Virus record (IMG/VR): IMGVR_UViG_3300031469_000005
Location: 48,887-112,886 of that record
From: a virus
Direction: 5' to 3' (one strand)
DNA length: 64,000 nucleotides
Below are positions 1,672-25,557 of the stretch, piece after piece (positions within the stretch are counted from its first letter, which is position 1; each line of letters opens with the position of its first letter). The translations under genes and the position numbers were made by a program. The notes under the pieces are model-generated. The model was not told the DNA's origin. It did not search any database and was given only the letters and a program-made list of their open reading frames with translations.

Positions 1672-1980
1672 TCAAACAAATGACACGATCCAATCGGCTC
1701 GATGCAATTCTTGGTTGACGTGGTACGTGTGATGCCTCAATTTTTGATTTGAGTTGATCGTCGTGATCTGAACGAAGACGTCATCACTCGGCTTTACGCT
1801 GACTCCAACCGATTCAAGGATACCCGTACACGATACAACTGATATGACGAGCTCCACCGGATATCGAGCCCAAAAATTTGTCGTTCCCGCCGTTCTGGTG
1901 ATGAACATTTTCTTGTTGAGAAGCATTGTTCCCGGCTTGATGTCGAGCCAGTGAATGCGTGTGTCAAGACTTTGCGACAT
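1672..1980 (-). CDS. PGD-motif family protein, 102 aa
   Basis: Start taken as MSQSLDTRIHW (1980), overlapping the 3' end of the ligase gene by 17 nt. It has the family N-terminus WLDIKPGTMLL followed by beta-type segments (MFITRTAG, VELVISVVSCTG, DVFVQITTI). The motif has GT instead of GD. Lies directly downstream of the DNA ligase on the same strand. Function unknown. Confidence 0.65.
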   Translation of the reverse strand: MSQSLDTRIHWLDIKPGTMLLNKKMFITRTAGTTNFWARYPVELVISVVSCTGILESVGVSVKPSDDVFVQITTINSNQKLRHHTYHVNQELHRADWIVSFV

Positions 1981-3343
1981 GAGCTTCGTATGCACGGACA
2001 ACTTGCGGATCTACATCACATTCTTCCCGCCACCTTTTAAAAACGGGAAATCTTACTTTGAGATCGGGTGTCAAAAATTGACCCTTAATTTCCATGATCT
2101 TCCCATAATATGTCTCGGGGCCAACGAGCTGAAATTCAGCACGTTGAGCATCCTTCCAACCACCACCGCATCTCGTGGTCACACCGTCCTTCGAGAGGCC
2201 GATGAAGCCCCCGAATTGACCTTCGCGCTTCGTGTTGGTATGTCCTTGGTACCAACCGACGACCACCAACTCGTGAGTGGTCACGGGCTTGAACTTTCGA
2301 ATTGCCTTCGAACGTTCGAACACGTACGGAGAATAGAGATCCTTGAGCATGACACCCTCGAATCCCGCTTCGAGACTTTCGAAGAAGAACTCAAGCAGCT
2401 CGGGCTCGTTCGAGATGATCTTACCTTCAACGGCCACGATGTTGGGGTGATTCAAGGCGGCGACGATTGTTTTCACGTTCGAGATGCGTTCACCGAACCA
2501 CGTTCCACAGAGTTGACTCGACCATTCGGTGATCGTCATCGTGTCGAACACGTTGATCTTGATCTGGCTGTCATCCTTCAGATTCTTGCTCGAAAGCAGA
2601 ACGCTTGCAGACATCTCCCAGTTATCGCACATTGCTTCGCAATCGAGGACGAAGTTATCGAACTTCGACGCTTCAAGAACCTTCTTGATCGTGGGGAGGG
2701 TATCGAATTGCTTCCCGTTGCGGGAGAACATTTCAACGACACCATCTTTCTTGATGACGACGCACCGGAAGCCGTCGATCTTACGGTCAGCGTAGACGGG
2801 GTACGAGATTCGCTCGTTGATCTTCACATCGTAGCCGCGTGGGCTGTCGTGATTCTCCACGACCTTCGCCTCGAGAGGTTCCGCGAGAGATACCGCGAAC
2901 TTCTTCACCAGACCCGGCCAGAACTTCTCGACAAGGTTGTCCGAAACGCCGCAGCGCATGTTCCTGAGCAGGATTCGGTGACACCATTTTTGTTCGAGTT
3001 CGAGCATTTCAGCGAAACTGTTCACGACTGCATCCTTCGCAGCATTCCCCGAAAGTTCTCGAACGTTGAGACGATCCAGCAAGTCAATGAACTTTGAAAT
3101 TTCGCGATCCGATTCCTGCGAAAGATACGCATCGACATCATCAATACCGTCGCAGTAACGTGATGCAGAACCCGGAGCGGAGGGCATCTTGAACTTCACC
3201 ACACCGAAGTTCGCAAACGGGTCGCCCACGATCTGGAAGATCCGCTTCAGAAGCTCGTTGTTCGCGTGTTGCTCGAGAATTGCTTCCTTCGCAAGACGCG
3301 AGTTGTCAGCTTCGAGGGCTTCGAGAATGTCTACTACGTTCAT
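1964..3343 (-). CDS. ATP-dependent DNA ligase, T4 gp30-like
   Basis: 459 aa, close to the 487 aa of T4 ligase. Seals 3'-OH/5'-phosphate nicks through an AMP-lysine intermediate. The adenylation motif I is ADRKIDGFR (nucleophile Lys in KxDG, about residue 187). Downstream are motif III-like DNFVLDCEA, motif IV-like GFEGVMLKD and motif V-like RKFKPV, then a C-terminal OB-type segment. The N-terminal helical part (about 1-165) matches the T4-type N-domain. It would serve phage replication and repair. A second, smaller ATP ligase lies at 18516-19394 beside Ku. A leaderless-type promoter sits immediately upstream. Confidence 0.93.
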   Translation of the reverse strand: MNVVDILEALEADNSRLAKEAILEQHANNELLKRIFQIVGDPFANFGVVKFKMPSAPGSASRYCDGIDDVDAYLSQESDREISKFIDLLDRLNVRELSGNAAKDAVVNSFAEMLELEQKWCHRILLRNMRCGVSDNLVEKFWPGLVKKFAVSLAEPLEAKVVENHDSPRGYDVKINERISYPVYADRKIDGFRCVVIKKDGVVEMFSRNGKQFDTLPTIKKVLEASKFDNFVLDCEAMCDNWEMSASVLLSSKNLKDDSQIKINVFDTMTITEWSSQLCGTWFGERISNVKTIVAALNHPNIVAVEGKIISNEPELLEFFFESLEAGFEGVMLKDLYSPYVFERSKAIRKFKPVTTHELVVVGWYQGHTNTKREGQFGGFIGLSKDGVTTRCGGGWKDAQRAEFQLVGPETYYGKIMEIKGQFLTPDLKVRFPVFKRWREECDVDPQVVRAYEAHVAKS

Positions 3344-9308: not shown

Positions 9309-9311
9309 CGA

Positions 9312-9340: not shown

Positions 9341-9345
9341 CAATC

Positions 9346-9934: not shown

Positions 9935-9939
9935 AGATC

Positions 9940-10235: not shown

Positions 10236-10328
10236 ATCAACGACGCAAGATAGATCCGCGAACTGGCACCTCAGCAGGCGTTCTGGGGTTTCGTTGTATC
10301 AACCGCTATTAACATTCATTAACACATC

Positions 10329-10763: not shown

Positions 10764-10775
10764 GATCAAGTTCAC

Positions 10776-12867: not shown

Positions 12868-12896
12868 AACTCTTAACAATTCTTCGTCGCCCGGTC

Positions 12897-13121
12897 GTGC
12901 ACGATTATGTTCTAATCGCCATTTCGCTCGTTGTTTTAGTTGAGCGTTGCTGTTGTTTTTATTTTGATAAGGATGCATACGATGCGACCGCAACAAAGCT
13001 CGTTGGAATGTTCAACGAAAATGCGAAGCAATTCCTGCTCGATTTGACTGTCTATCAAGCGGGAATGCCGACGTTGGTAACCGCAAGCGAACAACACACA
13101 ATCTTCAAGAAGAATTCATGA
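12897..13121 (+). CDS. Hypothetical protein with N-terminal membrane anchor, 74 aa
   Basis: GTG start. YVLIAISLVVLVERCCCFYF is a hydrophobic anchor followed by a soluble helical domain. Three adjacent Cys end the anchor. The stop overlaps the next ATG. Function unknown. Confidence 0.5.
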   Translation: MHDYVLIAISLVVLVERCCCFYFDKDAYDATATKLVGMFNENAKQFLLDLTVYQAGMPTLVTASEQHTIFKKNS

Positions 13122-13381
13122 ACACATTACCATACAAAGTCATCAACATTGCAACGAAGTTCGTGCAACACGAAGGTCGAATCGGATTCGACGCCGCGGC
13201 CCTGTTGACCCCCAAAAGCATACTGAGCATTCCTTGTGGGCGGTTCATTGTTGTGAACACTGAACTTGATCTCAATGGAAGCGAAGCAAGCTTGATCGTC
13301 TTTGTCAATGTCAACAAGTCCGTACTGCTTGAGGCATCGACCGCCTACGTAAGCTCCAGTCATAATACGATCTTAGCATAA
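13118..13381 (+). CDS. Hypothetical protein, 87 aa
   Basis: ATGA overlap with the previous gene. Beta-type segments (GRFIVVNTELD, ASLIVFVNVNKSVLL). Function unknown. Confidence 0.6.
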   Translation: MNTLPYKVINIATKFVQHEGRIGFDAAALLTPKSILSIPCGRFIVVNTELDLNGSEASLIVFVNVNKSVLLEASTAYVSSSHNTILA

Positions 13382-13402
13382 ACATCTCGTTCACGTAGCT
13401 TA

Positions 13403-14200
13403 ATGAGTTCCTCATACACAAACGTGAGTCGGATAAAGTTCCTCTCAAAAGGAGGCGTTGCAGGTGAGATTCCTGTCGTGAACGAGAAGTTTGATATTCC
13501 CATTCAAGAGATCCGTATCGGCGATTTGATCATTGATCACAACAACCATATTTTCTTATTGATCGCAAGTCAACTTGAATTCGACGGATCGATGCTGATG
13601 ACGTTTGCATACAATTCTTCCAGATGGAATCGTGATTCACAACTTGAATCGAAACGATTCTTGGTATTTACTTTACCGTTTTTTCAACTTTTTACGGAGC
13701 TAAATTCTGGTCAAGGGACGAACAACATGTTTGATTTTGTGTGTGTAGGATTCTTTTTGGGCATCGCAGTGACGTACTTCTCAATTCGCTACGCTCCCCG
13801 ATTGAGGTCGGGCGGTCATTCGTGTGGAACATGTAGGGTTGACAAGACGCTTTCAAAGGTTTCCTATTCAATCTGTGCAACGTTCAGAGATGGTAACAAG
13901 CAAATTTACCACAACGTTGGAGCACATGAATTTCTTGTTCAACGGAACGGCGGAAGATCGGATTTCGTATCAAAAAACGTCTCAGGCGTCTATGATACGA
14001 ATGGAAAGCTCGTAGTTAAAGTTCCGTTCAATTTCATCAAAGAATGGTGGTTCTTGAGCCAAAAAGATCACTTTTCGAAGCTTGAAACGGAAGATGTGAA
14101 TCGAATTCTTGATTTCATCGTCACTGATGCGATCTGTTGGATCAATGCTCCGCCCGACTTGAAGTTGTTGATTGCAAAACTCAAAGAAGACAAAAAATGA
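13403..14200 (+). CDS. PGD-like N-terminal domain fused to a membrane protein, 265 aa
   Basis: Residues about 30-60 (IQEIRIGDLIIDHNNHIFLLIAS) resemble the PGD-motif family, with GD but no Pro. From residue about 110 a second part starts MFDFVCVGFFLGIAVTYFSIRY, a transmembrane helix, then GGHSCGTCRVDK and a soluble domain. The internal Met and the change in character suggest two formerly separate genes joined by loss of a stop. The function of neither part is known. Confidence 0.6.
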   Translation: MSSSYTNVSRIKFLSKGGVAGEIPVVNEKFDIPIQEIRIGDLIIDHNNHIFLLIASQLEFDGSMLMTFAYNSSRWNRDSQLESKRFLVFTLPFFQLFTELNSGQGTNNMFDFVCVGFFLGIAVTYFSIRYAPRLRSGGHSCGTCRVDKTLSKVSYSICATFRDGNKQIYHNVGAHEFLVQRNGGRSDFVSKNVSGVYDTNGKLVVKVPFNFIKEWWFLSQKDHFSKLETEDVNRILDFIVTDAICWINAPPDLKLLIAKLKEDKK

Positions 14201-14379
14201 AACGAAACATCTTAGCTTTACTTTTTATCACATCATGCGTTTCTTCATCGCTTCCTTCCCCCGATCGATTTCGAAAGGATGATCTGTACTGTTGGATCAA
14301 AACCTCTCAAGGCGAATGGGTTGCACGTGGAATCCCAGAATCGTGTCCAGAAGGTACGTCAACGCTTGACGTTGAATGA
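14197..14379 (+). CDS. Small predicted lipoprotein, 60 aa
   Basis: ATGA overlap with the previous gene. MKRNILALLFITSCVSS has a basic start, a hydrophobic core and a lipobox-like ITSC, so the mature protein would be a lipid-anchored peptide of about 46 aa with two more Cys. Small phage lipoproteins include outer spanins and superinfection-exclusion proteins. No inner-spanin partner is seen beside it, so the role is open. Confidence 0.6.
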   Translation: MKRNILALLFITSCVSSSLPSPDRFRKDDLYCWIKTSQGEWVARGIPESCPEGTSTLDVE

Positions 14380-14387
14380 AAATTGAT

Positions 14388-14416
14388 TTGAACGTTGCTT
14401 CAATGATGATTATGGT
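14388..14416 (+). promoter_or_regulatory. Promoter, leaderless type
   Basis: -35 TTGAAC (14388-14393), 17 nt spacer, -10 TATGGT (14411-14416), 5 nt before ATG 14422. Lacks the TGN extension at the usual position, so it is a weaker match. Confidence 0.45.
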
Positions 14417-14421
14417 ATCTC

Positions 14422-14541
14422 ATGATCGGTGACCACGCTCGGTGGCGAGGCCGAATTGTTCGCATAACTGACGAGTATTGGGGCGTTGTGATGTTCACGC
14501 TAAAAGGCAAGCATTACGAAGCGATGATTTCAGAGCTCTAA
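14422..14541 (+). CDS. Small protein, 39 aa
   Basis: MIGDHARWRGRIVRITDEYW, then GVVMFTLKGKHYEAMI: a compact beta-rich sequence placed 5 nt after a -10 box. Function unknown. The next 98 nt up to the sigma gene are A/T-rich with no recognisable gene. Confidence 0.45.
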   Translation: MIGDHARWRGRIVRITDEYWGVVMFTLKGKHYEAMISEL

Positions 14542-14639
14542 CCGATTCACTTACGAATCTTAAGGTAAAATGACGACAGAATCTTTCAGAAATAAAGTTA
14601 ACAATTTACATTTAGAAAAGTCGAAAAAAAATTAGTCTA

Positions 14640-15422
14640 TTGAACACGGGTGACAGGATCGTTTCGACGTACCTCAACGAACTTCGTAAGTACCCACAGC
14701 TTGAACATGAAGAAGTTGTTGAGCTCTTTAAGAAGATCGAAAACAAGGCAATCGACTGTAACGCAGCAAGAAAGAGGTTGATCGAATGCAACCTCCGTCT
14801 CGTCGTCTCGATTGCAAAGAAGTACAAGAACTACAATCTCCCAATCGAAGATCTGATTCAAGAGGGCAACCTGGGTCTGATCAAGGGCATCGAGCGTTTC
14901 GACTGGTCGAAGGGATTCAAGTTCAGCACGTACGCATCTTGGTGGATTCAACAAGCCATCGGGCAACACGTGTTAAAGCGTCGTAGGACGATCAGGTTGC
15001 CTGGACATGCTGCCACAGCCCAAAGCAAGATCATGAATGTTTCAGAGGTATATCGGTTGAAGTTCAACATGAGTCCCTCAATTGAGGAGATCGTTGCGGC
15101 GACAGGAATTTCTGAGACGATCGTGAAGGCTACGCTTCAATCAACTCGCAACACGATATCGTTTTCCGATCGACCGAATGCAAACAGTTCGGAAACATTC
15201 GGAGACAAGATCGTGGATGACACTAACGATTCTGACCCCTACTTGAACCTCTCAAAGAAAGAGTTGCTGGGTATCGTTGGAAAGGTGATCAAAACGCTTT
15301 CAAAGAAGGAGGCAATCATACTTCGACTGAGATTTGGTCTCATAGACGATGTCGATTGCACAGATTACACAGTTTCCCAGGGCGAGGTTGAATCTATCAT
15401 GGCTGGAAAAGGACTTGAATGA
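14640..15422 (+). CDS. Sigma-70-family RNA polymerase sigma factor, region 4.2 missing
   Basis: 260 aa from a TTG start. Residues about 8-30 look like region 1.2 ([13 protein letters not shown]). Region 2 is clear: [34 protein letters not shown] and the DNA-melting [16 protein letters not shown] region 3 helix-turn-helix ([18 protein letters not shown]) and region 4.1-like [15 protein letters not shown] follow. The usual region 4.2 helix-turn-helix that reads the -35 box is absent; the protein ends about 20 residues after 4.1. The next gene, overlapping by ATGA, carries an HTH-like segment. It may direct the phage promoter set described in the findings. Confidence 0.9.
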
Positions 15423-15724
15423 GCGACGTTGAAAAAATTGACAGTGAAGTTAAAGAGGATGCGTCTGGATCGAACGACGAAGGTGTCAACTACAGGGACA
15501 TTGCTCAATTGATGACCGAAAGTGGGTACAAGATGAACCACTCTTCGGTGAGGAACTACGTGATTCGTATCATGAAAAAGTTCGTCAGTGCCTATGTATC
15601 ACGGAACGATATTAACTTGACGGATGAAAGGATCGATGAGATCGCTAAATCGTCATCATTTCAGAAGGTGATGGCGAACATCCTTCACATGCACTCAATA
15701 AAGGATAAGAATGTCAAACGTTGA
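15419..15724 (+). CDS. Small HTH-like protein, possible detached sigma region 4.2
   Basis: 101 aa, ATGA overlap with the sigma gene. After an acidic N-terminus it reads [20 protein letters not shown], continuing [13 protein letters not shown], which has the shape of a helix-turn-helix and resembles sigma region 4.2 (EIA...SxxxVRxxxxRxxxKF). T4 separates a region-2 sigma (gp55) from a region-4-like co-activator (gp33), so a two-subunit factor is plausible. No sequence link to gp33 is claimed. Confidence 0.55.
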
Positions 15725-16097
15725 ACTCAAGAACGTGCCCAGCATGAAGCTCGAAAGCGTGCTTCGTCGCAGGAAGACAACATTGAAAAAATTCATTGCA
15801 GATGCGGGCGTACAATCGTACGCCGGTTTGCAATCACTGTGTCAAAGATTTGGTGTAACACCGCCCGATGAGAAAACATTCAATGATGAGATCAATCCAC
15901 CTCTCGTCACTAGTCAGCAGGACGGGATCGTTGTCGTAACATCGTACGAATCGCCAGTCATTGAACAAAACGTTGTTCAACCTCCCGTTGAAAAGAAACG
16001 TTACAAGAAATGGTCAGAAGCGAAGGAAGATCGTAAGAATCGACAAATGGAAAATGTTGTCAGTTCGGACTCGAACAAAGGTTCAAAAGATGAGTGA
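15711..16097 (+). CDS. Hypothetical protein, 128 aa
   Basis: Overlaps the previous gene by 14 nt. N-terminal domain (LESVLRRRKTTLKKFIADAG, SYAGLQSLCQRFGVTPP) could bind nucleic acid. The C-terminus is basic and low in complexity (KKRYKKWSEAKEDRKNRQ). Function unknown. Confidence 0.6.
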   Translation: MSNVELKNVPSMKLESVLRRRKTTLKKFIADAGVQSYAGLQSLCQRFGVTPPDEKTFNDEINPPLVTSQQDGIVVVTSYESPVIEQNVVQPPVEKKRYKKWSEAKEDRKNRQMENVVSSDSNKGSKDE

Positions 16098-16443
16098 GGC
16101 TCGTAAAATGAGCAATTTAAACCTCGTTGTTCAAGATGTTCGTCACTTGAACGTTCGGCGTCGCAATCGAAATAAGAAAAACAGGCAGACGCATCTCGAT
16201 GAGAACGGGTTCAGCCTTCCGATGGAAATTCGTCCCGTCATCGACGTTATAATGGCATATGGTAAGAAGACGAATTCGCTTGGTACACTCGGAGCCGCAA
16301 AGATATTGACGGACATTGCTGAGTCGTTGAAAAAGTTAAATTTGCATTCGACGAATGTTGCCATTAAAGAATTGATTGACAACGCTGAGAAGCAAGCAGA
16401 GAATCTTAGATTTCAAGTTGAAGCATCATACGATGAAACGTAA
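16090..16443 (+). CDS. Hypothetical protein, 117 aa
   Basis: Start ATG 16090 (MSEARKMSNLNL) overlaps the previous gene. A very basic patch (NVRRRNRNKKNRQ) is followed by helices (EIRPVIDVIMAYGKK, KILTDIAESLKKL, IKELIDNAEKQAENL). Function unknown. Confidence 0.55.
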   Translation: MSEARKMSNLNLVVQDVRHLNVRRRNRNKKNRQTHLDENGFSLPMEIRPVIDVIMAYGKKTNSLGTLGAAKILTDIAESLKKLNLHSTNVAIKELIDNAEKQAENLRFQVEASYDET

Positions 16444-16463
16444 AAGACACCATAGTTACTTGG

Positions 16464-16850
16464 GTGGGAATCATAGACTCGTACTTTGAGCAAAAACTTG
16501 TAAAGTTACCCTGTGATGATGCGGTGAAAGCTTACGTGCAAAGCGTGTTCAAGCAATTTGCTGTATCATCAACAAGCGATCTGAGCGGCGAATCAATCGT
16601 ATTGCTTCACATCGTCGCTAAACGTAAGATGGACTTTTCGATGTTTCAATCGATCGGAGATTTCTCGTTGTGGTCGTCAGTGTTCCGTCCTCGAGCGTTC
16701 GATGAACACGAAGTCGTTTACAAGACGATTGCAAGTGATTCGTATCGAATGTGTCACATGATGTTGAACAAACAATGGCCCTTGTTCGAAATGCTCGCAG
16801 ATGATTTTCCGAGGATAGCGCGAATCTCAAGAAAGATTGTCATTGACTGA
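16464..16850 (+). CDS. Hypothetical protein, 128 aa
   Basis: GTG start, MGIIDSYFEQKLVKLPCDD. Helical throughout (DAVKAYVQSVFKQF, MCHMMLNKQWPLFEML). Function unknown. Confidence 0.55.
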   Translation: MGIIDSYFEQKLVKLPCDDAVKAYVQSVFKQFAVSSTSDLSGESIVLLHIVAKRKMDFSMFQSIGDFSLWSSVFRPRAFDEHEVVYKTIASDSYRMCHMMLNKQWPLFEMLADDFPRIARISRKIVID

Positions 16851-16866
16851 ACAACCGTGTTACAAT
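16837..16866 (+). promoter_or_regulatory. Extended -10 promoter, leaderless type
   Basis: -35 TTGTCA (16837-16842), 18 nt spacer, TGTTACAAT (-10 at 16861-16866), 5 nt before ATG 16872. Confidence 0.65.
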
Positions 16867-16871
16867 GAAGG

Positions 16872-17060
16872 ATGATTGAATTCGACGCGGATCATGAATT
16901 CTTGAAGAAGATTCGAGCTCATTTCAAGAAGGAATCGAAAAGTTACGTTCTCGAAACACAAGACGAGATTGACATGGCGAAGATCTTCGTCAAGCGGGGA
17001 TTCTTGTACTATTCTGGGGGCACTGAGAGGGTCGCTCCCTTCGATTGCGTGATGAGATGA
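16872..17060 (+). CDS. Hypothetical protein, 62 aa
   Basis: MIEFDADHEFLKKIRAHFKK, then QDEIDMAKIFVKRGFLYYSGG. Starts 5 nt after a -10. Its TGA is followed in the same frame by the 17106-17366 ORF with no intervening stop. Function unknown. Confidence 0.55.
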   Translation: MIEFDADHEFLKKIRAHFKKESKSYVLETQDEIDMAKIFVKRGFLYYSGGTERVAPFDCVMR

Positions 17061-17105
17061 ATTCCGACCGGGACAGATGCTTCTTGTCATAAGACCGTTC
17101 CATGG

Positions 17106-17366
17106 TTGGATTGCGTCGAAAATGTTTCCGCAATTACCTCAAAACGAATTTCTCATTTTAAAAATGACATTGTGTTCATCGTGGGAATACAAACCGTCTT
17201 TTATCGCAAAGACTTTAACGATGAAATCCCGGCGCGAGACAAGGTTGACATTCGAATTTCAATGGTCCATAAAGGAACACTCAGGGTGGGTGATCACTCA
17301 CAGATTGACAGGTTGTGGTACGAAACAAAGTTCATGGATGATGTGTTCAAACCAGTTTGTCCATGA
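17106..17366 (+). CDS. Uncertain ORF, 86 aa, in frame with the preceding gene
   Basis: The frame is open directly after the TGA at 17058-17060. The only plausible start is TTG 17106, with no ribosome site. The body (NDIVFIVGIQTVFYRKDF, RDKVDIRISMVHKG) has codon use like its neighbours. A second frame over the same DNA begins DEFRPGQM just after 17053, resembling the PGD signature, so the locus may be a decayed family member. Which frame is used is not resolved. Confidence 0.35.
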   Translation: MDCVENVSAITSKRISHFKNDIVFIVGIQTVFYRKDFNDEIPARDKVDIRISMVHKGTLRVGDHSQIDRLWYETKFMDDVFKPVCP

Positions 17367-17372
17367 TACAAT
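17343..17372 (+). promoter_or_regulatory. Extended -10 promoter of the Ku gene, with leader
   Basis: -35 GTGTTC (17343-17348), 18 nt spacer, TGATACAAT (-10 at 17367-17372). A 26-nt leader contains the ribosome site AGGAG (17385-17389) before ATG 17399. Confidence 0.7.
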
Positions 17373-17398
17373 GAACTCTCACTCAGGAGATTATCAAA

Positions 17399-18175
17399 AT
17401 GGCAAGACGAGCAAGTTGTTCCGCGGTAATTAGTTTCGGTTTGGTTTCGATTCCGGTGAAGTTCTACATCGCAGCAAAGACTGAGAACGTGTCTTTCTGC
17501 CTGTTGTCACCGAAGGGTGATCGAGTCGAGCAACTCTATCGTGAAAAGAGCACGGGCAAGGAGGTAGCTCGCAACGAGATGCTCCGTGGTTACGAGGTCG
17601 GAAAGAACCAGATCGTTCAATTCACAAGCGATGAGATCAAAGCTCTAGAGGAGAAGAACAACGGTGAGATCGAGATCAAGGAGTTCGTTCCTGCATCTTC
17701 GGTGGATCTGCTTCACGTTGAAACCAGCCACCATCTTTCTCCCGGCAAGGGTGGTGATAAGGCATACACTCTCCTCGCTAAGGCCCTTCTGAAGACTGAG
17801 CAGTACGCGGTGGCACAGTACACAGCTCGTGGCAAGCAACACGTTGTGGTCATTCGTCCTTATCAGGACGGTCTCGTCATTCATCAAATGTTCCTGGCGA
17901 ACGAGGTTCGGGAATTCGAGAGCGATGTCGCCAAGGTTACCGTGAAGGACACTGAGGTCGACATGGCATGCATGTTGATCGCTTCCTTGAAGAAGGACAA
18001 GTACGATGTTTCTTCCTACGTTGACACCTACAAGGAACGCGTTGAGAAGGCCGTCGAGGCGAAGTTGGCCGGTACGAAGGCACCCGAGGAACCCGAAGCA
18101 AAGCCCGAGCCAATCAATGACCTCTTCGCGGCTCTTCAGGCGAGTCTCGCAGCTCAAGCCAAGAAGACTGCGTGA
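17399..18175 (+). CDS. ku: Ku-family DNA end-binding protein
   Basis: 258 aa, typical of bacterial Ku homodimers (about 250-330 aa). Opens ARRASCSAVISFGLVSIPVK, nearly the canonical Ku N-terminus (ISFGLVxIPVKxY). It continues with CLLSPKGDRVEQLYREKSTG, YEVGKNQIVQFTSDE and the bridge-region segment EQYAVAQYTARGKQHVVVI. The C-terminus is a Glu/Lys/Pro-rich linker and a short helix (NDLFAALQASLAAQ). Ku threads onto double-strand ends and recruits ligase for non-homologous end joining. An ATP ligase lies 340 nt downstream. Phage Ku is known from mycobacteriophages Omega and Corndog, where it aids genome circularisation. Confidence 0.95.
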   Translation: MARRASCSAVISFGLVSIPVKFYIAAKTENVSFCLLSPKGDRVEQLYREKSTGKEVARNEMLRGYEVGKNQIVQFTSDEIKALEEKNNGEIEIKEFVPASSVDLLHVETSHHLSPGKGGDKAYTLLAKALLKTEQYAVAQYTARGKQHVVVIRPYQDGLVIHQMFLANEVREFESDVAKVTVKDTEVDMACMLIASLKKDKYDVSSYVDTYKERVEKAVEAKLAGTKAPEEPEAKPEPINDLFAALQASLAAQAKKTA

Positions 18176-18184
18176 ACAACTTGA

Positions 18185-18241
18185 GATTGACCGAGATTTA
18201 ATCATTAATTTTTATTGGTGGAAAAATAATCTCGGTCAATC
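18185..18241 (+). repeat. 14-bp perfect inverted repeat with nested A/T stem
   Basis: Left arm 18185-18198 (GATTGACCGAGATT) and right arm 18228-18241 (AATCTCGGTCAATC) are perfect complements around a 29-nt loop. The loop holds a further short stem (ATTTTT...AAAAAT). It lies 9 nt after the Ku stop. There is no T-run after the right arm, so it is not a standard intrinsic terminator. It may be a processing or protective hairpin, a protein site, or a bidirectional terminator. Confidence 0.7.
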
Positions 18242-18270
18242 GAGTGTTCTCAAGTAAACGTCGAAACATC

Positions 18271-18504
18271 ATGATGTATTCAGAATTGCTCCCGGGCGAT
18301 CTTTTAATTCTTTCTACGAAAGAACATCATAACTCGTGGTTCGTAATTTCAAAACATGTCAATGACGTTCGAAAAGATACGATGAAACTCAATGTCTTGT
18401 CATCAAGATCGAAATTGATCGTTTGGAACGCAGTTTTTGCTCGTATTGATGATACGGTACGTATTTTTCGTGAAGGAAAGTGTGTTTTCGACCCTGAGAA
18501 GTGA
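18271..18504 (+). CDS. PGD-motif family protein, 77 aa
   Basis: MMYSELLPGDLLILSTKEHH at the N-terminus and RIFREGKCVF at the C-terminus show both family motifs. WFVISKH and KLNVLSSRSKLIVW are the middle strands. It sits between Ku and the ligase. Start ATG 18271 or 18274. Confidence 0.75.
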   Translation: MMYSELLPGDLLILSTKEHHNSWFVISKHVNDVRKDTMKLNVLSSRSKLIVWNAVFARIDDTVRIFREGKCVFDPEK

Positions 18505-18510
18505 TAGGAT
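18482..18510 (+). promoter_or_regulatory. Extended -10 promoter of the second ligase, leaderless type
   Basis: -35 GTGTTT (18482-18487), 17 nt spacer, TGATAGGAT (-10 at 18505-18510), 5 nt before ATG 18516. Confidence 0.8.
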
Positions 18511-18515
18511 AAATC

Positions 18516-19394
18516 ATGCACATCAAGAGTTACTCTGGCCCAAAGGTTCAGATTCAGCCCGAGGAGCTCGCTGCGTACGATAACGGTCGATGGTCGTGCG
18601 AAGAAAAGCATGACGGCCATTTCTGCGAGATAACGACCGACGATCAGGGGACGATCGTATCGTTGATCGGCAGATCCGGGAAGACGTTCACGAATTCGAA
18701 CGTTCAAGAATTTACGAACTTGAACATCGGAATTCCCAACTCCGTATTCGTCAGCGAGCTCGAAGCGGGTACCGAAGCATCTCGTAGGAAGAACGATGCT
18801 CTCGGCCATTCTCGATTGATCGTGTTTGACGTTGTGAGGCTTTTGGGTCAGTCAACCGTTGACCTACCTAACTCACAACGTCGAGCGCTTCTCGAGCTTG
18901 CATTCACGAAGGAGAATAAGTTCGTGAAGCTCGTTAAGAGAATCACCACGGGTTTCAAGGATTTCTACGAAACGCTAATGAGTGAAGGTGCTGAAGGTAT
19001 CGTGCTCAAGCGAAATGATGCACGATACCTTCATGGCAAGACGGACAACATGATCCGGTGCAAGAAACACCGTTACGTTGATTACGTCGTCATGTCGATT
19101 GCAAAAAGCAAAGGTGGGAGTCCCAACTTTCAGGTAGGACTTTTCATCGAGGGAAAGTTGCAGCGAGTCGCAACGATAAAGAACCTTCCCAATGATTACA
19201 TTCGCCGTTACCTTGAGCTCGATTTCGGTCAAGATTGGATGACGGAAGATCTGCAAGTATTCGTTGGAAAGGTCGTCGAATGCAAGGGAGCAGAGGTTCA
19301 TGATTCAGGAGCTCTTCGTCATGGACATCTCGAACGAGTTCGAGATGACAAGACGGTCGATGAATGCACTCTTGAGGCAGCGTTGAACTCATGA
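18516..19394 (+). CDS. ATP-dependent DNA ligase, LigD/minimal type
   Basis: 292 aa, the size of a ligase core (nucleotidyltransferase plus OB fold) without extra domains. Motif I is CEEKHDGHF (Lys nucleophile, about residue 31). Motif Ia-like is SLIGRSGKTF, then motif III-like RLIVFDVVRL, motif IV EGAEGIVLKR and motif V-like NMIRCKKH. The OB-fold part ends with VVECKGAEVHDSG and GHLERVRDDK. The core resembles the ligase domain of bacterial NHEJ LigD. Its place after Ku makes an NHEJ role likely. Polymerase and phosphoesterase modules of LigD are not seen in the window. Confidence 0.9.
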   Translation: MHIKSYSGPKVQIQPEELAAYDNGRWSCEEKHDGHFCEITTDDQGTIVSLIGRSGKTFTNSNVQEFTNLNIGIPNSVFVSELEAGTEASRRKNDALGHSRLIVFDVVRLLGQSTVDLPNSQRRALLELAFTKENKFVKLVKRITTGFKDFYETLMSEGAEGIVLKRNDARYLHGKTDNMIRCKKHRYVDYVVMSIAKSKGGSPNFQVGLFIEGKLQRVATIKNLPNDYIRRYLELDFGQDWMTEDLQVFVGKVVECKGAEVHDSGALRHGHLERVRDDKTVDECTLEAALNS

Positions 19395-19699
19395 ATGCCA
19401 TCGGATGGGGAATCGAATGGAAGAACGTCCTCGTTCAAAAGGACGGCCACCCAGCACGATCCTGGATCTACGTCGAAGCTCGCGTACTGAAGCCAGGGGA
19501 CATGATCGGTCTAAATCGTGATGAGAAATTGAACTTCCACATGATCGTTTCGGTTGAACAAGATGGAATTAAACACGGTTCTGTCGTTTTAGACGCACGA
19601 ATCAAACTTACGTTCTTGAATCCCTCGATGGGACTAACAATACTGTATCAGGCACCTTTCCACAACGTTAAAAGATTACAAACGAATTCCAACATATGA
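19391..19699 (+). CDS. PGD-motif family protein, 102 aa
   Basis: ATGA overlap with the ligase. After a 30-residue extension it reads EARVLKPGDMIGLNRDEKL, then FHMIVSVEQDG and GSVVLDARIKLTFL. Coupled with the next gene by ATGA. Function unknown. Confidence 0.7.
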   Translation: MNAIGWGIEWKNVLVQKDGHPARSWIYVEARVLKPGDMIGLNRDEKLNFHMIVSVEQDGIKHGSVVLDARIKLTFLNPSMGLTILYQAPFHNVKRLQTNSNI

Positions 19700-19965
19700 A
19701 AAAATTCATTGATACTTCCTTGAATCCGTTCATTGATGCTAGAACCGACGAATTCTTCGCACCTCCTTTCTTCATCCGACAAACCGAATTCATGTCAGTT
19801 TCTCGAAACGCTTACATGAGCGTTTCGGGCATCGTCCTTTCGAACACTGGCGGAGAATGGTTTTGCTACGTTGAATATGCGTCAGCGAACGCTGCGACGG
19901 CAGAGTTAGCATTGCTGATCGCTTTAGCAAAGAATCATACCGCGATCAGTCAAATGTTGACATGA
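19696..19965 (+). CDS. Hypothetical protein, 89 aa
   Basis: ATGA overlap. MKKFIDTSLNPFIDARTDEFFAPPFF, then SVSGIVLSNTGGEWFCYVEY and an Ala-rich helix. No family recognised. Confidence 0.6.
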   Translation: MKKFIDTSLNPFIDARTDEFFAPPFFIRQTEFMSVSRNAYMSVSGIVLSNTGGEWFCYVEYASANAATAELALLIALAKNHTAISQMLT

Positions 19966-19975
19966 TATGGAACTT

Positions 19976-20004
19976 GTGTTCAATCGATGTTTTTGTGTTA
20001 CATT
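19976..20004 (+). promoter_or_regulatory. Extended -10 promoter
   Basis: -35 GTGTTC (19976-19981), 17 nt spacer, TGTTACATT (-10 at 19999-20004), 17 nt before ATG 20022. Confidence 0.7.
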
Positions 20005-20021
20005 CAAAATAGGTATTGTTC

Positions 20022-20288
20022 ATGGCAATTGAACATATCATTGATCAGGTTGACAAGGAAACGACGATGCTTTCAAAAGAAACAAAAGCGGTGCCACGAA
20101 AATGTTCTAAGTTAACCGTGGGAGATATAATCTTGACCACGCGGCCTGGTGACACAGCGAGAGTGTTCAACGTTCATGTTGAAGGTGATTACACACACAT
20201 CACCTACGGGTCGGAGGAATCGAAGCTTTCCGACAAATTTCTAAATGATTTCAAGATTCTTTACGTGGAAAAAAACACGTTGAATTGA
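20022..20288 (+). CDS. PGD-motif family protein, 88 aa
   Basis: After an N-terminal extension (MAIEHIIDQVDKETTML) it reads KCSKLTVGDIILTTRPGDTARVFN. Two GD turns are present; the first fits the family position. Beta strands follow. Function unknown. Confidence 0.6.
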   Translation: MAIEHIIDQVDKETTMLSKETKAVPRKCSKLTVGDIILTTRPGDTARVFNVHVEGDYTHITYGSEESKLSDKFLNDFKILYVEKNTLN

Positions 20289-20305
20289 CGGGCGAAAATA
20301 GACCA

Positions 20306-20548
20306 ATGGCAATCAATCAGAAAAACAGCAGTAACTTAAACGATGACGATTACTTTTTCTTCGTGAATTGTGATCGGTGCGACAAGGCGGCGAAGAAGTG
20401 TGCGAAGGATCATGGTGCCGCCGCAGACAACGCTAGGGCGGAGGGGTTCATTACAATCCCGGGAGCAAAGAGCACCTCTCCACGATCGTGGTTATGCATG
20501 ACATGCAAATCACCTCAAACGGCGATCAACCACGACCCTAGAATTTGA
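20306..20548 (+). CDS. Small putative zinc-binding protein, 80 aa
   Basis: ATG 20306 is chosen; TTG 20285, overlapping the previous stop, is possible. Two cysteine pairs, CDRCDKAAKKC and WLCMTC, are spaced as in a zinc ribbon. Function unknown. Confidence 0.55.
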   Translation: MAINQKNSSNLNDDDYFFFVNCDRCDKAAKKCAKDHGAAADNARAEGFITIPGAKSTSPRSWLCMTCKSPQTAINHDPRI

Positions 20549-20551
20549 ACG

Positions 20552-21088
20552 ATGGCGATCAACGTCATCTTTGGTAAAGGCGGAGGACGGATCGATAAAA
20601 ATCGCATCAACGATATCGATCTTGCTTTAGACCTACATAATCGAGCGTTCGAGCTTGAAAAGGATCCTCGAACGTTGCACATTGCGAAGCAACTTTACGA
20701 GGAATCAATCAGGATAAATCCGTACCTGTACGAATCGTTGTATAATCTCGCAATCTACGAGCACAAGGAGGGGAACGATGCTCGGGCGGAAGAACTTTGG
20801 CGACGATGTTTTGACTCCCACTTAGGTTCACTTGCGGCTGCGAGTCTGGGACTGATGAATCTGAACAACAAGAATTGGGATGAAGCGGTAATCAACCTAT
20901 CGCTGGCAATCAAATTAAATCCAACAGCAATTGAAGCTTACCATAACCTCGCATTCGTGTACAGCAACGTGGGTTTGGTCATGTCAGAGAAGAGGTGCTG
21001 GCAACGGGTCCTTGAACTTGATCCACAAAACAAGCACTCAAAGATGATCCAAGACCGCCTGAAGTACATCAACAAACATGCAATGTGA
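20552..21088 (+). CDS. Tetratricopeptide-repeat protein, 178 aa
   Basis: At least three TPR-like helical repeats are visible: ESLYNLAIYEHKEGNDARAEELWRRC, ASLGLMNLNNKNWDEAVINL with AIKLNP, and EAYHNLAFVYSNVG ending LELDPQN. TPR proteins are protein-protein scaffolds; the partner here is unknown. Phage TPR proteins are uncommon. Confidence 0.8.
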   Translation: MAINVIFGKGGGRIDKNRINDIDLALDLHNRAFELEKDPRTLHIAKQLYEESIRINPYLYESLYNLAIYEHKEGNDARAEELWRRCFDSHLGSLAAASLGLMNLNNKNWDEAVINLSLAIKLNPTAIEAYHNLAFVYSNVGLVMSEKRCWQRVLELDPQNKHSKMIQDRLKYINKHAM

Positions 21089-21093
21089 ACGTC

Positions 21094-21252
21094 ATGAAAA
21101 AGAAGAACGTCAAACCTCGAAATCACGAGCTCGCGGTCGTCCTAAAGAATGATCCTGCGCGGCTCAAGATTCGTACGGTTGAAAGCGAGCAAAAGAAGCT
21201 CATCAAGTCACGTTCAAGACGAAAATCATTGAATCAAGACATTGAGGAATAA
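21094..21252 (+). CDS. Small basic protein, 52 aa
   Basis: MKKKNVKPRNHELAVVLKND and a Lys/Arg-rich C-terminus (KKLIKSRSRRKSLNQ). GTG 21085, overlapping the previous stop, is an alternative start. Charge suggests nucleic-acid binding, which is inference. Confidence 0.5.
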   Translation: MKKKNVKPRNHELAVVLKNDPARLKIRTVESEQKKLIKSRSRRKSLNQDIEE

Positions 21253-21255
21253 TGA

Positions 21256-21284
21256 GTGTTTTCGTCCGTAAACTATGTTAAGAT
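21256..21284 (+). promoter_or_regulatory. Extended -10 promoter
   Basis: -35 GTGTTT (21256-21261), 17 nt spacer, TGTTAAGAT (-10 at 21279-21284), 10 nt before ATG 21295. Confidence 0.7.
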
Positions 21285-21294
21285 TGATCTACAC

Positions 21295-21582
21295 ATGATG
21301 AATTCCGCCCCTCCCTCGAAAAAGAAAAGCATGGGCATCGTCCTGGGAGATCACCTTTCCGATGCTGAGGAAATGCTTCCCACAAGGCGTGATACGTTGC
21401 CAAGCGTTCTCGATGGCGTTGAAGGTTCAGCGACGGTAATCGATCTCGATTCGATCCAGTTCAACGATCCCGTCAAATACGCAGAGGTTTCTCGAATCGT
21501 TCATGAGCTCGCGAACGTGCTTGATGGTCGGATCATCTTGAAACACAAGGGTTCAATCGTTCGAGAAATTGGTTCTCGATGA
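21295..21582 (+). CDS. Hypothetical protein, 95 aa
   Basis: MMNSAPPSKKKSMGIVLGDH, then a helical segment VKYAEVSRIVHELANVLDGR and RIILKHKGSIVREIG. The promoter-based start excludes the longer frame from 21256. ATGA overlap with the next gene. Function unknown. Confidence 0.6.
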   Translation: MMNSAPPSKKKSMGIVLGDHLSDAEEMLPTRRDTLPSVLDGVEGSATVIDLDSIQFNDPVKYAEVSRIVHELANVLDGRIILKHKGSIVREIGSR

Positions 21583-21845
21583 AATTGAATCCCGGCGACC
21601 TCGTAAAGACGAGCCTTGTCGCAACGCACATGTCACGTAACACAATTCAATTGACGAATGTTCCGTCATTGCAGATCAAAAATGGACCAAGAACGCCGGG
21701 TACAGCGTTAGTTGTCACGGGTTTATTGGGTCAAAATGACACCGCTATCGTCATTTCAACGACCAACGATTCGCGTTACGCCTTCATCGTTTGTCCGGGT
21801 GGCGTGGGATACGTGTACGGTGCAATGTTGACGTTGGTCGGTTAA
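21579..21845 (+). CDS. PGD-motif family protein, 88 aa
   Basis: ATGA overlap. The motif lies at the very N-terminus, MKLNPGDLVKTSLVA, followed by TALVVTGLLGQNDTAIVIS and YAFIVCPGG strands. Function unknown. Confidence 0.7.
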   Translation: MKLNPGDLVKTSLVATHMSRNTIQLTNVPSLQIKNGPRTPGTALVVTGLLGQNDTAIVISTTNDSRYAFIVCPGGVGYVYGAMLTLVG

Positions 21846-21851
21846 AAAATT

Positions 21852-21880
21852 TTGTTCTTTCCTCACGAAAGTGTTAGGAT
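21852..21880 (+). promoter_or_regulatory. Extended -10 promoter, leaderless type
   Basis: -35 TTGTTC (21852-21857), 17 nt spacer, TGTTAGGAT (-10 at 21875-21880), 5 nt before ATG 21886. Confidence 0.8.
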
Positions 21881-21885
21881 CAATC

Positions 21886-22314
21886 ATGCACAACGATACC
21901 AAGTCAAAGTTCAATAAGTTCGTCAAGGAACTTTTCGGTGTTCACTCCACTCGAGACAACACGGTCGAAGAAACTTGGACGATGGGGGGTCTGACGGGAG
22001 GAAGTTGTTGGAGCGCCGACGACGGAGCCGATACACCCGTCGACCCCGATCCGGAACCCGAGCTCGGAGGACTTGACAAGCTGCTCGAAATCTTTTATCC
22101 CAACATCACGTACTTGCAGTACAAGAAGCTCGTAGCTGAGATCGTTCAACGTGAGACGTACCGTCAGTCTGAGTACTACGGCAACTGCTACGTCAAAGGT
22201 GTCAAGAAATTCAACATCGACGTGCTCTGTGACTACCTCGATGATGCTTGTCCCAATTTCACTGAAACTCTCGACAATGTCATCGCGAAGGTCGAAGCGG
22301 GCGAAGAGGTATGA
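21886..22314 (+). CDS. Hypothetical protein, 142 aa
   Basis: The frame opens at GTG 21871 but the promoter fixes ATG 21886. MHNDTKSKFNKFVKELFG, an acidic Pro-rich linker (DTPVDPDPEPELGG), then a helical C-terminal domain. First of four coupled genes (ATGA junctions) that include a P-loop kinase and a NADAR protein. Confidence 0.6.
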   Translation: MHNDTKSKFNKFVKELFGVHSTRDNTVEETWTMGGLTGGSCWSADDGADTPVDPDPEPELGGLDKLLEIFYPNITYLQYKKLVAEIVQRETYRQSEYYGNCYVKGVKKFNIDVLCDYLDDACPNFTETLDNVIAKVEAGEEV

Positions 22315-22691
22315 AAAAGATCACCGCGATCGTGGGCCTTCCCGGCTCAGGAAAGACTGAGTACGCGAAAAGCTTGAACGATCAGGCGATCCTGATCGAC
22401 GATCCCAAGCTCTTCGAAAACGACGTTGAGCCTTTCTTGAATGGTGATAAAGACATCGTCATCACCGACCCGTGGTTTTGTCTAACGGTGGTTCGAGCGG
22501 CGGCGGAAATTCACTTCAAAAACTACGGGTTCGAAGTGACATGGGTTTTCTTTGAGAACGATGTCAAAGCTTGCACAGAAAACTACAAACGACGGCATCC
22601 CACGAAGAACGTGTCACACGACATCAAGTGGTTTTCGTCCAAGTACTCAATTCCCGAAAATACGGTGACGGTTCCCGTCTGGAAGCCATGA
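22311..22691 (+). CDS. P-loop NTPase, small kinase-like
   Basis: 126 aa. Walker A IVGLPGSGKTEYAK at the N-terminus, then AILIDDP and KDIVITDPWFC as a Walker-B-like strand, WVFFENDVKACTENYKRR and a basic lid. The build resembles the AAA_33/polynucleotide-kinase group without the phosphatase half. The substrate is unknown. Coupled to the NADAR gene. Confidence 0.7.
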   Translation: MKKITAIVGLPGSGKTEYAKSLNDQAILIDDPKLFENDVEPFLNGDKDIVITDPWFCLTVVRAAAEIHFKNYGFEVTWVFFENDVKACTENYKRRHPTKNVSHDIKWFSSKYSIPENTVTVPVWKP

Positions 22692-23110
22692 CAATGAAAG
22701 AGATCAATTCATTTTCGAACGAATTTGCATTCCTTTCAAATTTCTACACGAGCGAAGTGGTGCTTGATGGTTCGTCGTACCCGACCGTCGAACACGCGTA
22801 CCAAGCTGCGAAAACGTTTGATTCGGTTCAAAGAAACGAAATTCGTTCTGCAAAAACGCCCGGAATCGCAAAGAAACTTGGCCGAAAGGTCACGCTTCGT
22901 GATGATTGGGAACAAGAGAAGATCTCAGTGATGAGAAATCTTCTCGAACAAAAGTTTTCACAGCCCGATCTTTTGCTCGCGTTGCAATCAACGAAGGGTT
23001 TCGATCTCGTCGAAGGTAATTGGTGGGGTGATGTGTTCTGGGGTGTGTGTCGCGGCGTTGGACAAAACTGGCTCGGAATTCTCTTGATGGAAATTCGAGA
23101 CATGAAATGA
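22688..23110 (+). CDS. NADAR-family protein (YbiA-like)
   Basis: 140 aa from ATG 22688 (ATGA overlap). It has the NADAR signatures FAFLSNFYTSEVVLDG, YPTVEHAYQAAKTFD and GDVFWGVCRGVGQN followed by LGILLMEIR. NADAR proteins cleave N-glycosidic bonds in ADP-ribose-linked compounds and riboflavin intermediates, and some remove ADP-ribose from guanine in DNA, counteracting DarT-type toxins. In a phage it may defend against ADP-ribosylating host immunity or recycle NAD products; this is inference. Confidence 0.88.
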   Translation: MTMKEINSFSNEFAFLSNFYTSEVVLDGSSYPTVEHAYQAAKTFDSVQRNEIRSAKTPGIAKKLGRKVTLRDDWEQEKISVMRNLLEQKFSQPDLLLALQSTKGFDLVEGNWWGDVFWGVCRGVGQNWLGILLMEIRDMK

Positions 23111-23313
23111 AACAGATCAAAATCAAAAATCTTTTTCCTGGTGATTTGATATTGTCGTCGTCGGCACCTGAAACACGCTGCGTGGTAATTGCAAATCTTC
23201 GTCATATACGAAAAGGTGAAGAAATTTCGGATCAAAGGAAGATAATCTATCTTCAAAATTTCGAGGTGAAACAATTCATTGCTCATGTAGGATCACTTGC
23301 AGATATCGCGTAA
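23107..23313 (+). CDS. PGD-motif family protein, 68 aa
   Basis: ATGA overlap with the NADAR gene. MKQIKIKNLFPGDLILSSSA, then RCVVIANLRH and KIIYLQNFE strands. Function unknown. Confidence 0.7.
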   Translation: MKQIKIKNLFPGDLILSSSAPETRCVVIANLRHIRKGEEISDQRKIIYLQNFEVKQFIAHVGSLADIA

Positions 23314-23343
23314 CAAGCATGTCAAAAGTTTGTAGAATTTTAC

Positions 23344-24048
23344 ATGTTTTCACTTAAACAAATCCGTCCCAAAGTTTTCCACCTTGAATTCGATTCCTGG
23401 ATGGAATTGTCAATGACGTTCGTTCGTTACCAGGAATTTTACGAGTCGAAGTACGATCACATTCGTGATAGTCGTTTCACCCTTGTTGAACACATGGGAG
23501 CATACCGTAGAGAGTATCTGGAGAACAATGACGAGCTTTGGTGTTATCCAACCGACTGGGCGGGATATAATCTACCCGCGAGTGTCATCAAGCAAGTTCA
23601 CGATCTCGGAATTCCTGATCCGAATCATTACGATTCATTGATGCTGGGAATCTACGGAATGATCATGTGCGAGACGATGGGCAAAGCCGCGTACATCATC
23701 GGAACCTACGTTCACGAAGGCGAAGACGAGAATGCGGGTGCTTTGACCATGAAGCATGAACTCACCCATGCGTTGTTTGCAACCAATGATGAGTACCGCG
23801 AAAAGGTGCTAGAGATCATTAACTCGGTTTCTGTGGAGCTTCGAGAGAAGCTAATAGGAATCCTTGCAAAGAACAATTATCCTCGTAAGACCGCCCTGGA
23901 TGAGATTAATGCCTATCTAACGACGGGTGGAGGAGGTTACTTTGATCACGTTGAAGATGAACTTCCCGAGTTCGATGATCTCAAAGCAAGTTTGAAAAAG
24001 TTGCACAAGATTTATTACACGAAGTTCATGGAAGATGATGAGGAATAA
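23344..24048 (+). CDS. Putative zinc metallopeptidase-like protein, 234 aa
   Basis: Contains LTMKHELTHALFATN, an HExxH motif at about residue 140, with downstream acidic residues. The N-terminal half (PKVFHLEFDSWMELSMTFVR, DWAGYNLPASVI) matches in style a conserved phage protein often annotated only as hypothetical. Cleavage activity is not shown. Its stop abuts the TTG start of the next gene. Confidence 0.6.
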   Translation: MFSLKQIRPKVFHLEFDSWMELSMTFVRYQEFYESKYDHIRDSRFTLVEHMGAYRREYLENNDELWCYPTDWAGYNLPASVIKQVHDLGIPDPNHYDSLMLGIYGMIMCETMGKAAYIIGTYVHEGEDENAGALTMKHELTHALFATNDEYREKVLEIINSVSVELREKLIGILAKNNYPRKTALDEINAYLTTGGGGYFDHVEDELPEFDDLKASLKKLHKIYYTKFMEDDEE

Positions 24049-25040: not shown

Positions 25041-25058
25041 AATTGGGTTTCCCCAATT
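25041..25058 (+). promoter_or_regulatory. Short hairpin just before a start codon
   Basis: AATTGGG (25041-25047) pairs with CCCAATT (25052-25058) around a 4-nt loop, ending 2 nt before ATG 25061. It could mask initiation of the following gene or end the upstream transcript; there is no T-run. Confidence 0.45.
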
Positions 25059-25060
25059 CA

Positions 25061-25315
25061 ATGAAGCGAATTAATTCTACGACAACGTCGGTAAAGGTGG
25101 CTGATTTGTTACCGGGTGACAATGTTTATTACAGAACTTATTTATCTGTGATAAGTTTTCTTGTCATTAGCTGCGGCGAGAAAGTTCTAATCCTTCAGAA
25201 AAAGGATAACAAATCACCCGAATTCGCAGAAATAGCCATGAGCAACGAAGGTATAATTCGTACTGATGCGTACATCGTACGAAACGGTGAACTCATTTTC
25301 AAAGGCAGATCGTGA
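25061..25315 (+). CDS. PGD-motif family protein, 84 aa
   Basis: VKVADLLPGDNVYYRTYLSV at the N-terminus and YIVRNGELIF at the C-terminus show both motifs. It is followed by a second member whose GTG overlaps this stop, a tandem pair. Confidence 0.72.
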   Translation: MKRINSTTTSVKVADLLPGDNVYYRTYLSVISFLVISCGEKVLILQKKDNKSPEFAEIAMSNEGIIRTDAYIVRNGELIFKGRS

Positions 25316-25557
25316 AGTACGGTCAACTTCGTCCGGGTGATATGTTTGTTTACGAAACATCCGGACCAGGTCGACAACTACGATCAGTTCTCGTGATTGG
25401 TAATCACGATGATGATCATCACGAAGTTTTGATGGTGAGATCACCCGGTTGCGTATGTAGCGTCATTCGATGGATACTATCGTTCGATAGATTGATCACG
25501 TCAGACGTTAAGGTGATCCACCTTACCAAAGGTCACGAACGAATGGGTCAGTCATGA
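25312..25557 (+). CDS. PGD-motif family protein, 81 aa
   Basis: GTG start overlapping the previous stop (GTGA). MKYGQLRPGDMFVYETSG, then RSVLVIGNHDDD and EVLMVRSPG strands. Last gene of the rightward block; its end overlaps a leftward gene by 35 nt. Confidence 0.72.
   Translation: MKYGQLRPGDMFVYETSGPGRQLRSVLVIGNHDDDHHEVLMVRSPGCVCSVIRWILSFDRLITSDVKVIHLTKGHERMGQS

What the first reader, a model, noticed from the sequence alone, without database searches (positions are those of the whole stretch)
17399..19394. NHEJ-type pair, Ku plus compact ATP ligase, besides a T4-type ligase
Ku (17399-18175) and a 292-aa LigD-type ligase (18516-19394) are separated by one PGD-family gene. A T4-type ligase (1964-3343) is also present. 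Phage Ku is known from mycobacteriophages Omega and Corndog, where host LigD is recruited. Here the phage seems to bring its own ligase, making a self-contained end-joining system.
Basis: partly seen in the sequence, partly recalled or inferred. Interest (0 to 1): 0.7.

Follow-up and report, generated by a model that had tools for sequence, protein, structure and literature searches.

The report
Phage-borne Ku with its own ligase
A large tailed phage carries, side by side, genes for a DNA-end-binding Ku protein and a small DNA-sealing enzyme, and unrelated giant phages keep the same two genes together, which suggests that some phages carry their own minimal break-joining kit instead of borrowing the host's.

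Summary
17399-18175 is a full-length bacterial-type Ku (NCBIfam Ku_bact 223 bits, cut-off 150). 18516-19394 is a compact ATP-dependent ligase with its nucleotidyltransferase motifs intact. 1964-3343(-) is a separate T4-type ligase. The record is a 113-kb tailed-phage fragment.

'LigD-type' holds only for the ligase core: LigD's ligase domain is the nearer profile, but the score is far below the curated cut-off, and the protein forms its own phage-only family. No LigD polymerase or phosphoesterase domain is found, so the pair could seal clean ends but not process damaged ones.

The new evidence is recurrence. The same ligase family sits 0.2-4.3 kb from Ku in all four records found to hold it, including 321-kb and 459-kb phages whose neighbourhoods otherwise share nothing with the window. 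Of 37 Ku-bearing viral records, 12 have an ATP ligase; in 11 it lies within 5 kb of Ku (chance P about 1e-9). Among deposited phage genomes, Ku was found almost only in mycobacteriophages, none with this ligase.

Best reading: a two-gene phage end-joining module that reseals nuclease-cut ends. Ku-ligase interaction and activity are untested. New variant of a known kind.

The parts
17399..18175 (+). Ku, 258 aa, bacterial-type DNA-end-binding protein with a short conserved C-terminal segment (IND-L-FAALQASL) and no long basic tail
   Evidence: families; model pLDDT 92.7; best PDB matches are M. tuberculosis and B. subtilis Ku; conserved columns; ribosome-binding site
18516..19394 (+). Compact ATP-dependent DNA ligase, 292 aa, nucleotidyltransferase plus OB domain; motif I K31-x-D-G, Ia R53, III E81, IIIa FD104-105, IV E160-G, V K183, VI RDDK 276-279
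   Evidence: families; motifs conserved in four phage homologues; model pLDDT 89.5; ATP-ligase fold; placement
18244..18504 (+). Small ORF, 86 aa, with an L-PGD motif, between Ku and ligase; probably incidental
   Evidence: no family hit; about 18 small ORFs with the motif in the record; only 226 nt between Ku and ligase in L014
18184..18242 (+). Stem-loop just downstream of the Ku stop codon (arms GATTGACCGAGATT / AATCTCGGTCAATC)
   Evidence: -32.2 kcal/mol, z -5.96, 0 of 200 shuffles fold as well; the two exact matches to the arm in the window are its own two arms
1964..3343 (-). T4-type ATP-dependent DNA ligase, 459 aa, presumed replication ligase; also kept in relative L014
   Evidence: PHROG 114, 338 bits; N-terminal domain matched in Pfam; 41% identical in L014

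Best explanation
The two genes are a minimal, phage-encoded end-joining module. A Ku homodimer would thread onto and hold broken DNA ends (inferred from the family and fold), and the neighbouring compact ligase, a second ligase besides the phage's T4-type one, would seal them using ATP (inferred from the intact motifs). The T4-type ligase would serve replication. Because no LigD polymerase or phosphoesterase part was found, the module most likely rejoins clean 5'-phosphate/3'-hydroxyl ends, such as those left by restriction enzymes, Cas nucleases or homing endonucleases, rather than chemically damaged ends. Shown here: both proteins, their completeness, and their non-random linkage in several phage lineages. 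Inferred: physical partnership, activity, and which breaks it serves.
For: Complete Ku and ligase with intact motifs and confident folds. The same ligase family sits 226 nt, 231 nt, 341 nt and 4.3 kb from Ku in four records, in both gene orders; apart from the close relative L014, nothing else near Ku is shared. Of 37 Ku-bearing viral records searched whole, 12 have an ATP ligase and 11 of these have it within 5 kb of Ku, 9 within 1 kb (expected 1.8 and 0.6; P about 1e-9 and 1e-10). The Ku-side ligase is additional: the window and L014 also have a T4-type ligase, and the 321-kb record has an NAD ligase. No LigD POL or PE domain in any of the 37 records.
Against: No biochemical or interaction evidence. 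Five of the large viral records with related Ku (G002, G003, G004, G007, G008) have no such ligase, and three of them have an NAD ligase, so Ku can be kept without the compact ligase. A strong hairpin and one ORF separate the two genes here. The ligase lacks the LigD polymerase domain, and how it would be recruited by Ku is unknown. The window record is a fragment, so end-processing genes may lie outside it.
Confidence: 0.66

Rival explanations
1. Genome circularisation: as proposed for mycobacteriophages Omega and Corndog, Ku plus ligase joins the injected linear genome's own ends after infection, here with a phage ligase instead of host LigD.
For: It is the role proposed for phage Ku in Cluster J and Cluster O phages, whose genomes have 4-base 3' overhangs (PMC3706429, PMC4351075).
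Against: The window phage has a T4-like contractile-tail module; from general knowledge, T4-like phages package terminally redundant genomes by headful and do not need end joining. The genome ends of this phage are unknown.
Confidence: 0.13
2. The two genes are neighbours but work separately: Ku protects ends or acts with a host or replication ligase, and the compact ligase is a general nick-sealing spare.
For: Several related large phages keep Ku without the compact ligase, three of them with an NAD ligase. For phage Mu, Gam is reported to promote NHEJ with a host ligase (PMC8136500). A hairpin and another gene separate the pair here.
Against: Linkage is far above chance in several lineages and in both gene orders.
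Confidence: 0.17
3. Chance carriage or contamination: a bacterial Ku-ligase fragment picked up recently, or an assembly artefact.
For: Ku is 52.5% G+C against 45.5% for the window, and its Ku lineage is related to bacterial Ku on the Myxococcota side.
Against: Other phage genes are equally G+C-rich (sheath 50.8%, T4-type ligase 51.6%). A separate viral record (L014) has the same neighbourhood. Pattern scans of 84,980 prokaryote genomes found no relative of the ligase. Many of the bacterial loci nearest in Ku carry a multidomain LigD of about 850 aa instead.
Confidence: 0.02

Closest known systems
Mycobacteriophage Ku of Omega (Cluster J) and Corndog (Cluster O)
   Same: A tailed phage encodes a bacterial-type Ku; in Omega and Corndog it is implicated in NHEJ.
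   Different: The window Ku is only about 26-29% identical and belongs to another Ku lineage. The mycobacteriophages use host LigD by report, and none of them matched the compact ligase.
Bacterial Ku-LigD two-component NHEJ
   Same: Ku with an ATP-ligase core whose C-terminal motif VI region (LRH...RxRxDKxxxEC) resembles LigD; genes close together.
   Different: LigD in the bacterial loci is about 850 aa with further domains; here only the ligase core is present, POL and PE were not found, and the ligase is a separate phage family.
Archaeal Ku plus stand-alone ligase (Archaeoglobus; Methanocella paludicola)
   Same: Ku beside a stand-alone ligase of about 313 aa in Archaeoglobaceae loci (L168, L169; PMC1378119).
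   Different: In M. paludicola separate polymerase and phosphoesterase genes accompany the ligase (PMC4797286); the window ligase does not group with the archaeal ones.
Phage and prophage LigD-like ligases without Ku (phiLM21, StopSmel, Alicyclobacillus phage KKP_3916)
   Same: Phage-borne ATP ligases with similarity to the compact ligase (StopSmel, KKP_3916) or annotated as NHEJ ligase (phiLM21).
   Different: No Ku was found in the deposited phages of this kind. Identity to the window ligase is only about 26-31%.
Phage Mu Gam with host ligase
   Same: A phage end-binding protein reported to promote NHEJ (PMC8136500).
   Different: Gam uses the E. coli ligase; here the phage carries a ligase of its own beside Ku.

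Membership tests
Bacterial-type Ku (NCBIfam TIGR02772) | Whole-protein match above the curated cut-off | tested here: met
   223 bits, cut-off 150
Bacterial-type Ku (NCBIfam TIGR02772) | Ku core fold like solved bacterial Ku | tested here: met
   Model pLDDT 92.7; 9ig8, 9vnq and 9i91 are the best matches, TM-score (query) 0.76-0.83
Bacterial-type Ku (NCBIfam TIGR02772) | Homodimer that binds DNA ends | not testable with these tools
   Inferred from the family
DNA ligase D (LigD) | Match to the NHEJ ligase-domain model above its cut-off (TIGR02779) | tested here: not met
   Best-scoring model, but 72 bits against a cut-off of 228
DNA ligase D (LigD) | Ligase core nearer to LigD than to other ATP ligases | tested here: inconclusive
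   Profile comparison favours LigD over T4-type (2.8e-26 against 5.6e-15), but the tree gives a separate phage family and the fold search mixes LigD with Lig1, Lig4 and archaeal ligases
DNA ligase D (LigD) | Polymerase (POL) and/or phosphoesterase (PE) domain, in the protein or in the same record | tested here: not met
   PF21686 and PF13298 absent from the record and from 36 others; the record is a fragment
Two-component Ku-ligase end joining | Ku and ligase genes linked more often than chance | tested here: met
   11 of 12 records with an ATP ligase have it within 5 kb of Ku, P about 1e-9
Two-component Ku-ligase end joining | Ligase catalytic motifs intact | tested here: met
   Motifs I, Ia, III, IIIa, IV, V and VI present and conserved in four homologues
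Two-component Ku-ligase end joining | Ku recruits and stimulates the ligase | not testable with these tools
   Needs protein work
Omega/Corndog-type circularisation | Unique genome ends with very short 3' overhangs | not testable with these tools
   Record is a linear fragment without end repeats

The most novel reading that the evidence does not exclude
Large phages have repeatedly assembled their own host-independent, two-gene end-joining system (Ku plus a dedicated phage-only minimal ligase with no polymerase or phosphoesterase) that reseals genomes cut by host restriction or CRISPR nucleases, so that end joining acts as phage counter-defence and as a source of genome mosaicism.
Probability: 0.35. 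Interest if true: 0.82.

Novelty: new variant of a known kind. Interest (0 to 1): 0.62.

Why it matters
Phage NHEJ has been described as a phage Ku (or Gam) exploiting a host ligase, with few Ku-bearing phages known, mostly mycobacteriophages. A Ku paired with a phage-only ligase in several large-phage lineages would mean that some phages bring both parts. That makes phage end joining testable in hosts without NHEJ, such as E. coli, offers a possible answer to how such phages survive double-strand cuts, and would give a Ku-ligase pair smaller than Ku-LigD as a laboratory tool.

Tried and rejected
Single-sequence pattern scans of viral contigs with the window Ku and ligase found nothing; alignments were needed. 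MT838252, the best non-mycobacteriophage Ku hit in the phage collection, looks like a bacterial contig fragment (5.5 kb, no annotation, marked unverified, with what looks like a DNA-glycosylase ORF) and was set aside. Contamination was considered and largely rejected: shared neighbourhood in a separate viral record and no relative of the ligase found in prokaryote genomes. The 86-aa PGD gene was considered as a third component and rejected: one of about 18 similar small ORFs, and no room for it between the genes in L014. The post-Ku hairpin was considered as a repeated element and rejected: the two exact matches to its arm are its own arms. LigD POL/PE searches were negative. Terminase searches found none in the window record, consistent with a fragment; tail-sheath matches identify it as a tailed phage. 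The host was not identified: the Ku tree leans to Myxococcota, but a gene tree is not a host assignment.

Full report
What is there. The window is bases 48887-112886 of a 112,886-base virus record with no end repeats. It is a tailed phage: two tail-sheath genes and a T4-like tail sheath stabiliser. It also carries a sigma factor, GroEL, thymidine kinase and a DNA polymerase III alpha gene in pieces. At 17399-18175 lies a complete Ku and at 18516-19394 a 292-aa ATP ligase with its nucleotidyltransferase motifs. A second, larger T4-type ligase is at 1964-3343 on the other strand.

Ku. It passes the curated bacterial Ku model (223 bits, cut-off 150). Its predicted structure (pLDDT 92.7) matches solved M. 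tuberculosis and B. subtilis Ku best. It keeps a short conserved C-terminal segment seen across the alignments. A review reports that the minimal C-terminal region of B. [quoted passage not shown] that the conserved segment here corresponds to it is inference. In trees the window Ku sits with Ku from other large viral records, nested among bacterial Ku on the Myxococcota side and away from mycobacteriophage Ku, which lies near actinobacterial Ku. So at least two separate phage acquisitions are likely, although the support for all eight large-phage sequences as one clade is weak (68/14).

The ligase. It is a nucleotidyltransferase plus OB-domain enzyme without room for an N-terminal DNA-binding domain. 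The nearest NCBIfam model is the LigD ligase domain, far below its cut-off. Profile comparison favours LigD (E 2.8e-26) over T4-type ligases (5.6e-15), though the LigD profile is deeper. Structure search lists LigD's ligase domain among many ATP ligases. In the tree it forms a four-member phage family on a long branch, weakly next to other phage ligases and not inside LigD. Pattern scans of one genome for each of 84,980 prokaryote species found no relative. I call it a compact phage ligase with a LigD-like core, not LigD.

The linkage. L014 (a 40-kb viral record from another sample) shares the sigma factor, PEPCK, two small genes, Ku, the compact ligase 226 nt after Ku, and the T4-type ligase. 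A 321-kb record (L019) has the compact ligase 231 nt upstream of Ku, and a 459-kb record (L018) has it 4.3 kb downstream. By protein comparison, these two loci share nothing else with the window's. Both large records carry terminase and sheath matches. The 321-kb record also has an NAD ligase, so there too the Ku-side ligase is additional. Searching 37 Ku-bearing viral records whole, 12 have an ATP ligase. In 11 it is within 5 kb of Ku, in 9 within 1 kb, against 1.8 and 0.6 expected (P about 1e-9 and 1e-10). These 12 involve several ligase and Ku lineages and both gene orders, so the pairing appears to have arisen or been kept repeatedly. Caveats: the records are not fully independent; G001, G015, G016, G018 and G032 had no match to the terminase and sheath models tried; and the ligase-seeded scan used an alignment drawn from Ku loci, so its 'all with Ku' result is not an unbiased count.

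What is missing. No LigD polymerase (PF21686) or phosphoesterase (PF13298) domain was found in any of the 37 records. In the known systems these fill gaps and restore 3'-hydroxyl ends (PMC8656161, PMC4797286). A Ku-ligase pair alone could seal only ends already carrying 5'-phosphate and 3'-hydroxyl. That fits nuclease-made breaks. The phage itself carries HNH and GIY-YIG homing-type endonuclease genes. This step is inference.

Comparison with the known. Published phage Ku cases use the host's LigD (Omega, Corndog) or, for Mu Gam, a host ligase. A 2025 survey listed 11 viral Ku sequences, all from mycobacteriophages or a Streptomyces phage (PMC11936186), and a 2021 study found Ku in 11 phages without discussing a phage ligase beside it in the passages read (PMC8136500). 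In 50,697 deposited phage records, Ku hits were in mycobacteriophages plus one doubtful contig, and the compact ligase's distant hits were in other phages. I found no paper describing a phage Ku with its own adjacent ligase, within an open-access library only. The closest architecture is the archaeal Ku plus stand-alone ligase.

Verdict. Observation confirmed; interpretation partly supported. The best reading is a minimal phage end-joining module, a new variant of a known kind. The mechanism is inferred from families and linkage and needs a joining assay.

Noticed in passing
window 11296-12867 (+) and 25770-26675 (-): ATP-type phosphoenolpyruvate carboxykinase (Pfam E 2.4e-157) and fructose-1,6-bisphosphatase (E 2.6e-33), two gluconeogenesis enzymes in one phage; the PEPCK is also in relative L014 (49% identical).
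   Followed up: partly
G000 record 8278-24429 (L002 8278-12322; L003 1391-4429): DNA polymerase III alpha is in pieces: an ORF ends in intein-like N-terminal sequence (record 21391-22314), another begins with intein-like C-terminal sequence followed by polymerase (23389-24429), and an endonuclease-like ORF (weak Vsr match) lies in the gap. This looks like a fractured gene with split inteins.
   Followed up: partly
whole G000 record; in the window e.g. 18244-18504, 19391-19699, 20016-20288, 21579-21845, 25043-25557, 34139-34411: About 18 small ORFs (65-102 aa) carry an L-PGD-like motif near the N-terminus, scattered through 113 kb; the ones tested had no family hit.
   Followed up: partly
window 36922-37731, 38054-38383, 47691-48494, 43882-45039, 60636-61748: HNH and GIY-YIG/NUMOD3 endonuclease-like genes and two DUF7487 (PF24308) proteins; DUF7487 also matches the endonuclease-like ORF in the polymerase gap weakly, so DUF7487 may mark homing endonucleases.
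   Followed up: no
L015, L017, L020 records (G002, G004, G007): Large viral records with Ku related to the window's and an NAD-dependent ligase but no ATP ligase: a possible Ku plus LigA arrangement.
   Followed up: no
L034 and L038 (viral records): Two tandem, different Ku genes in one viral record, suggesting a possible heterodimeric viral Ku.
   Followed up: no
window 62984-63952 (-): WGR domain protein with a DnaJ-like N-terminus, at the end of the record.
   Followed up: no
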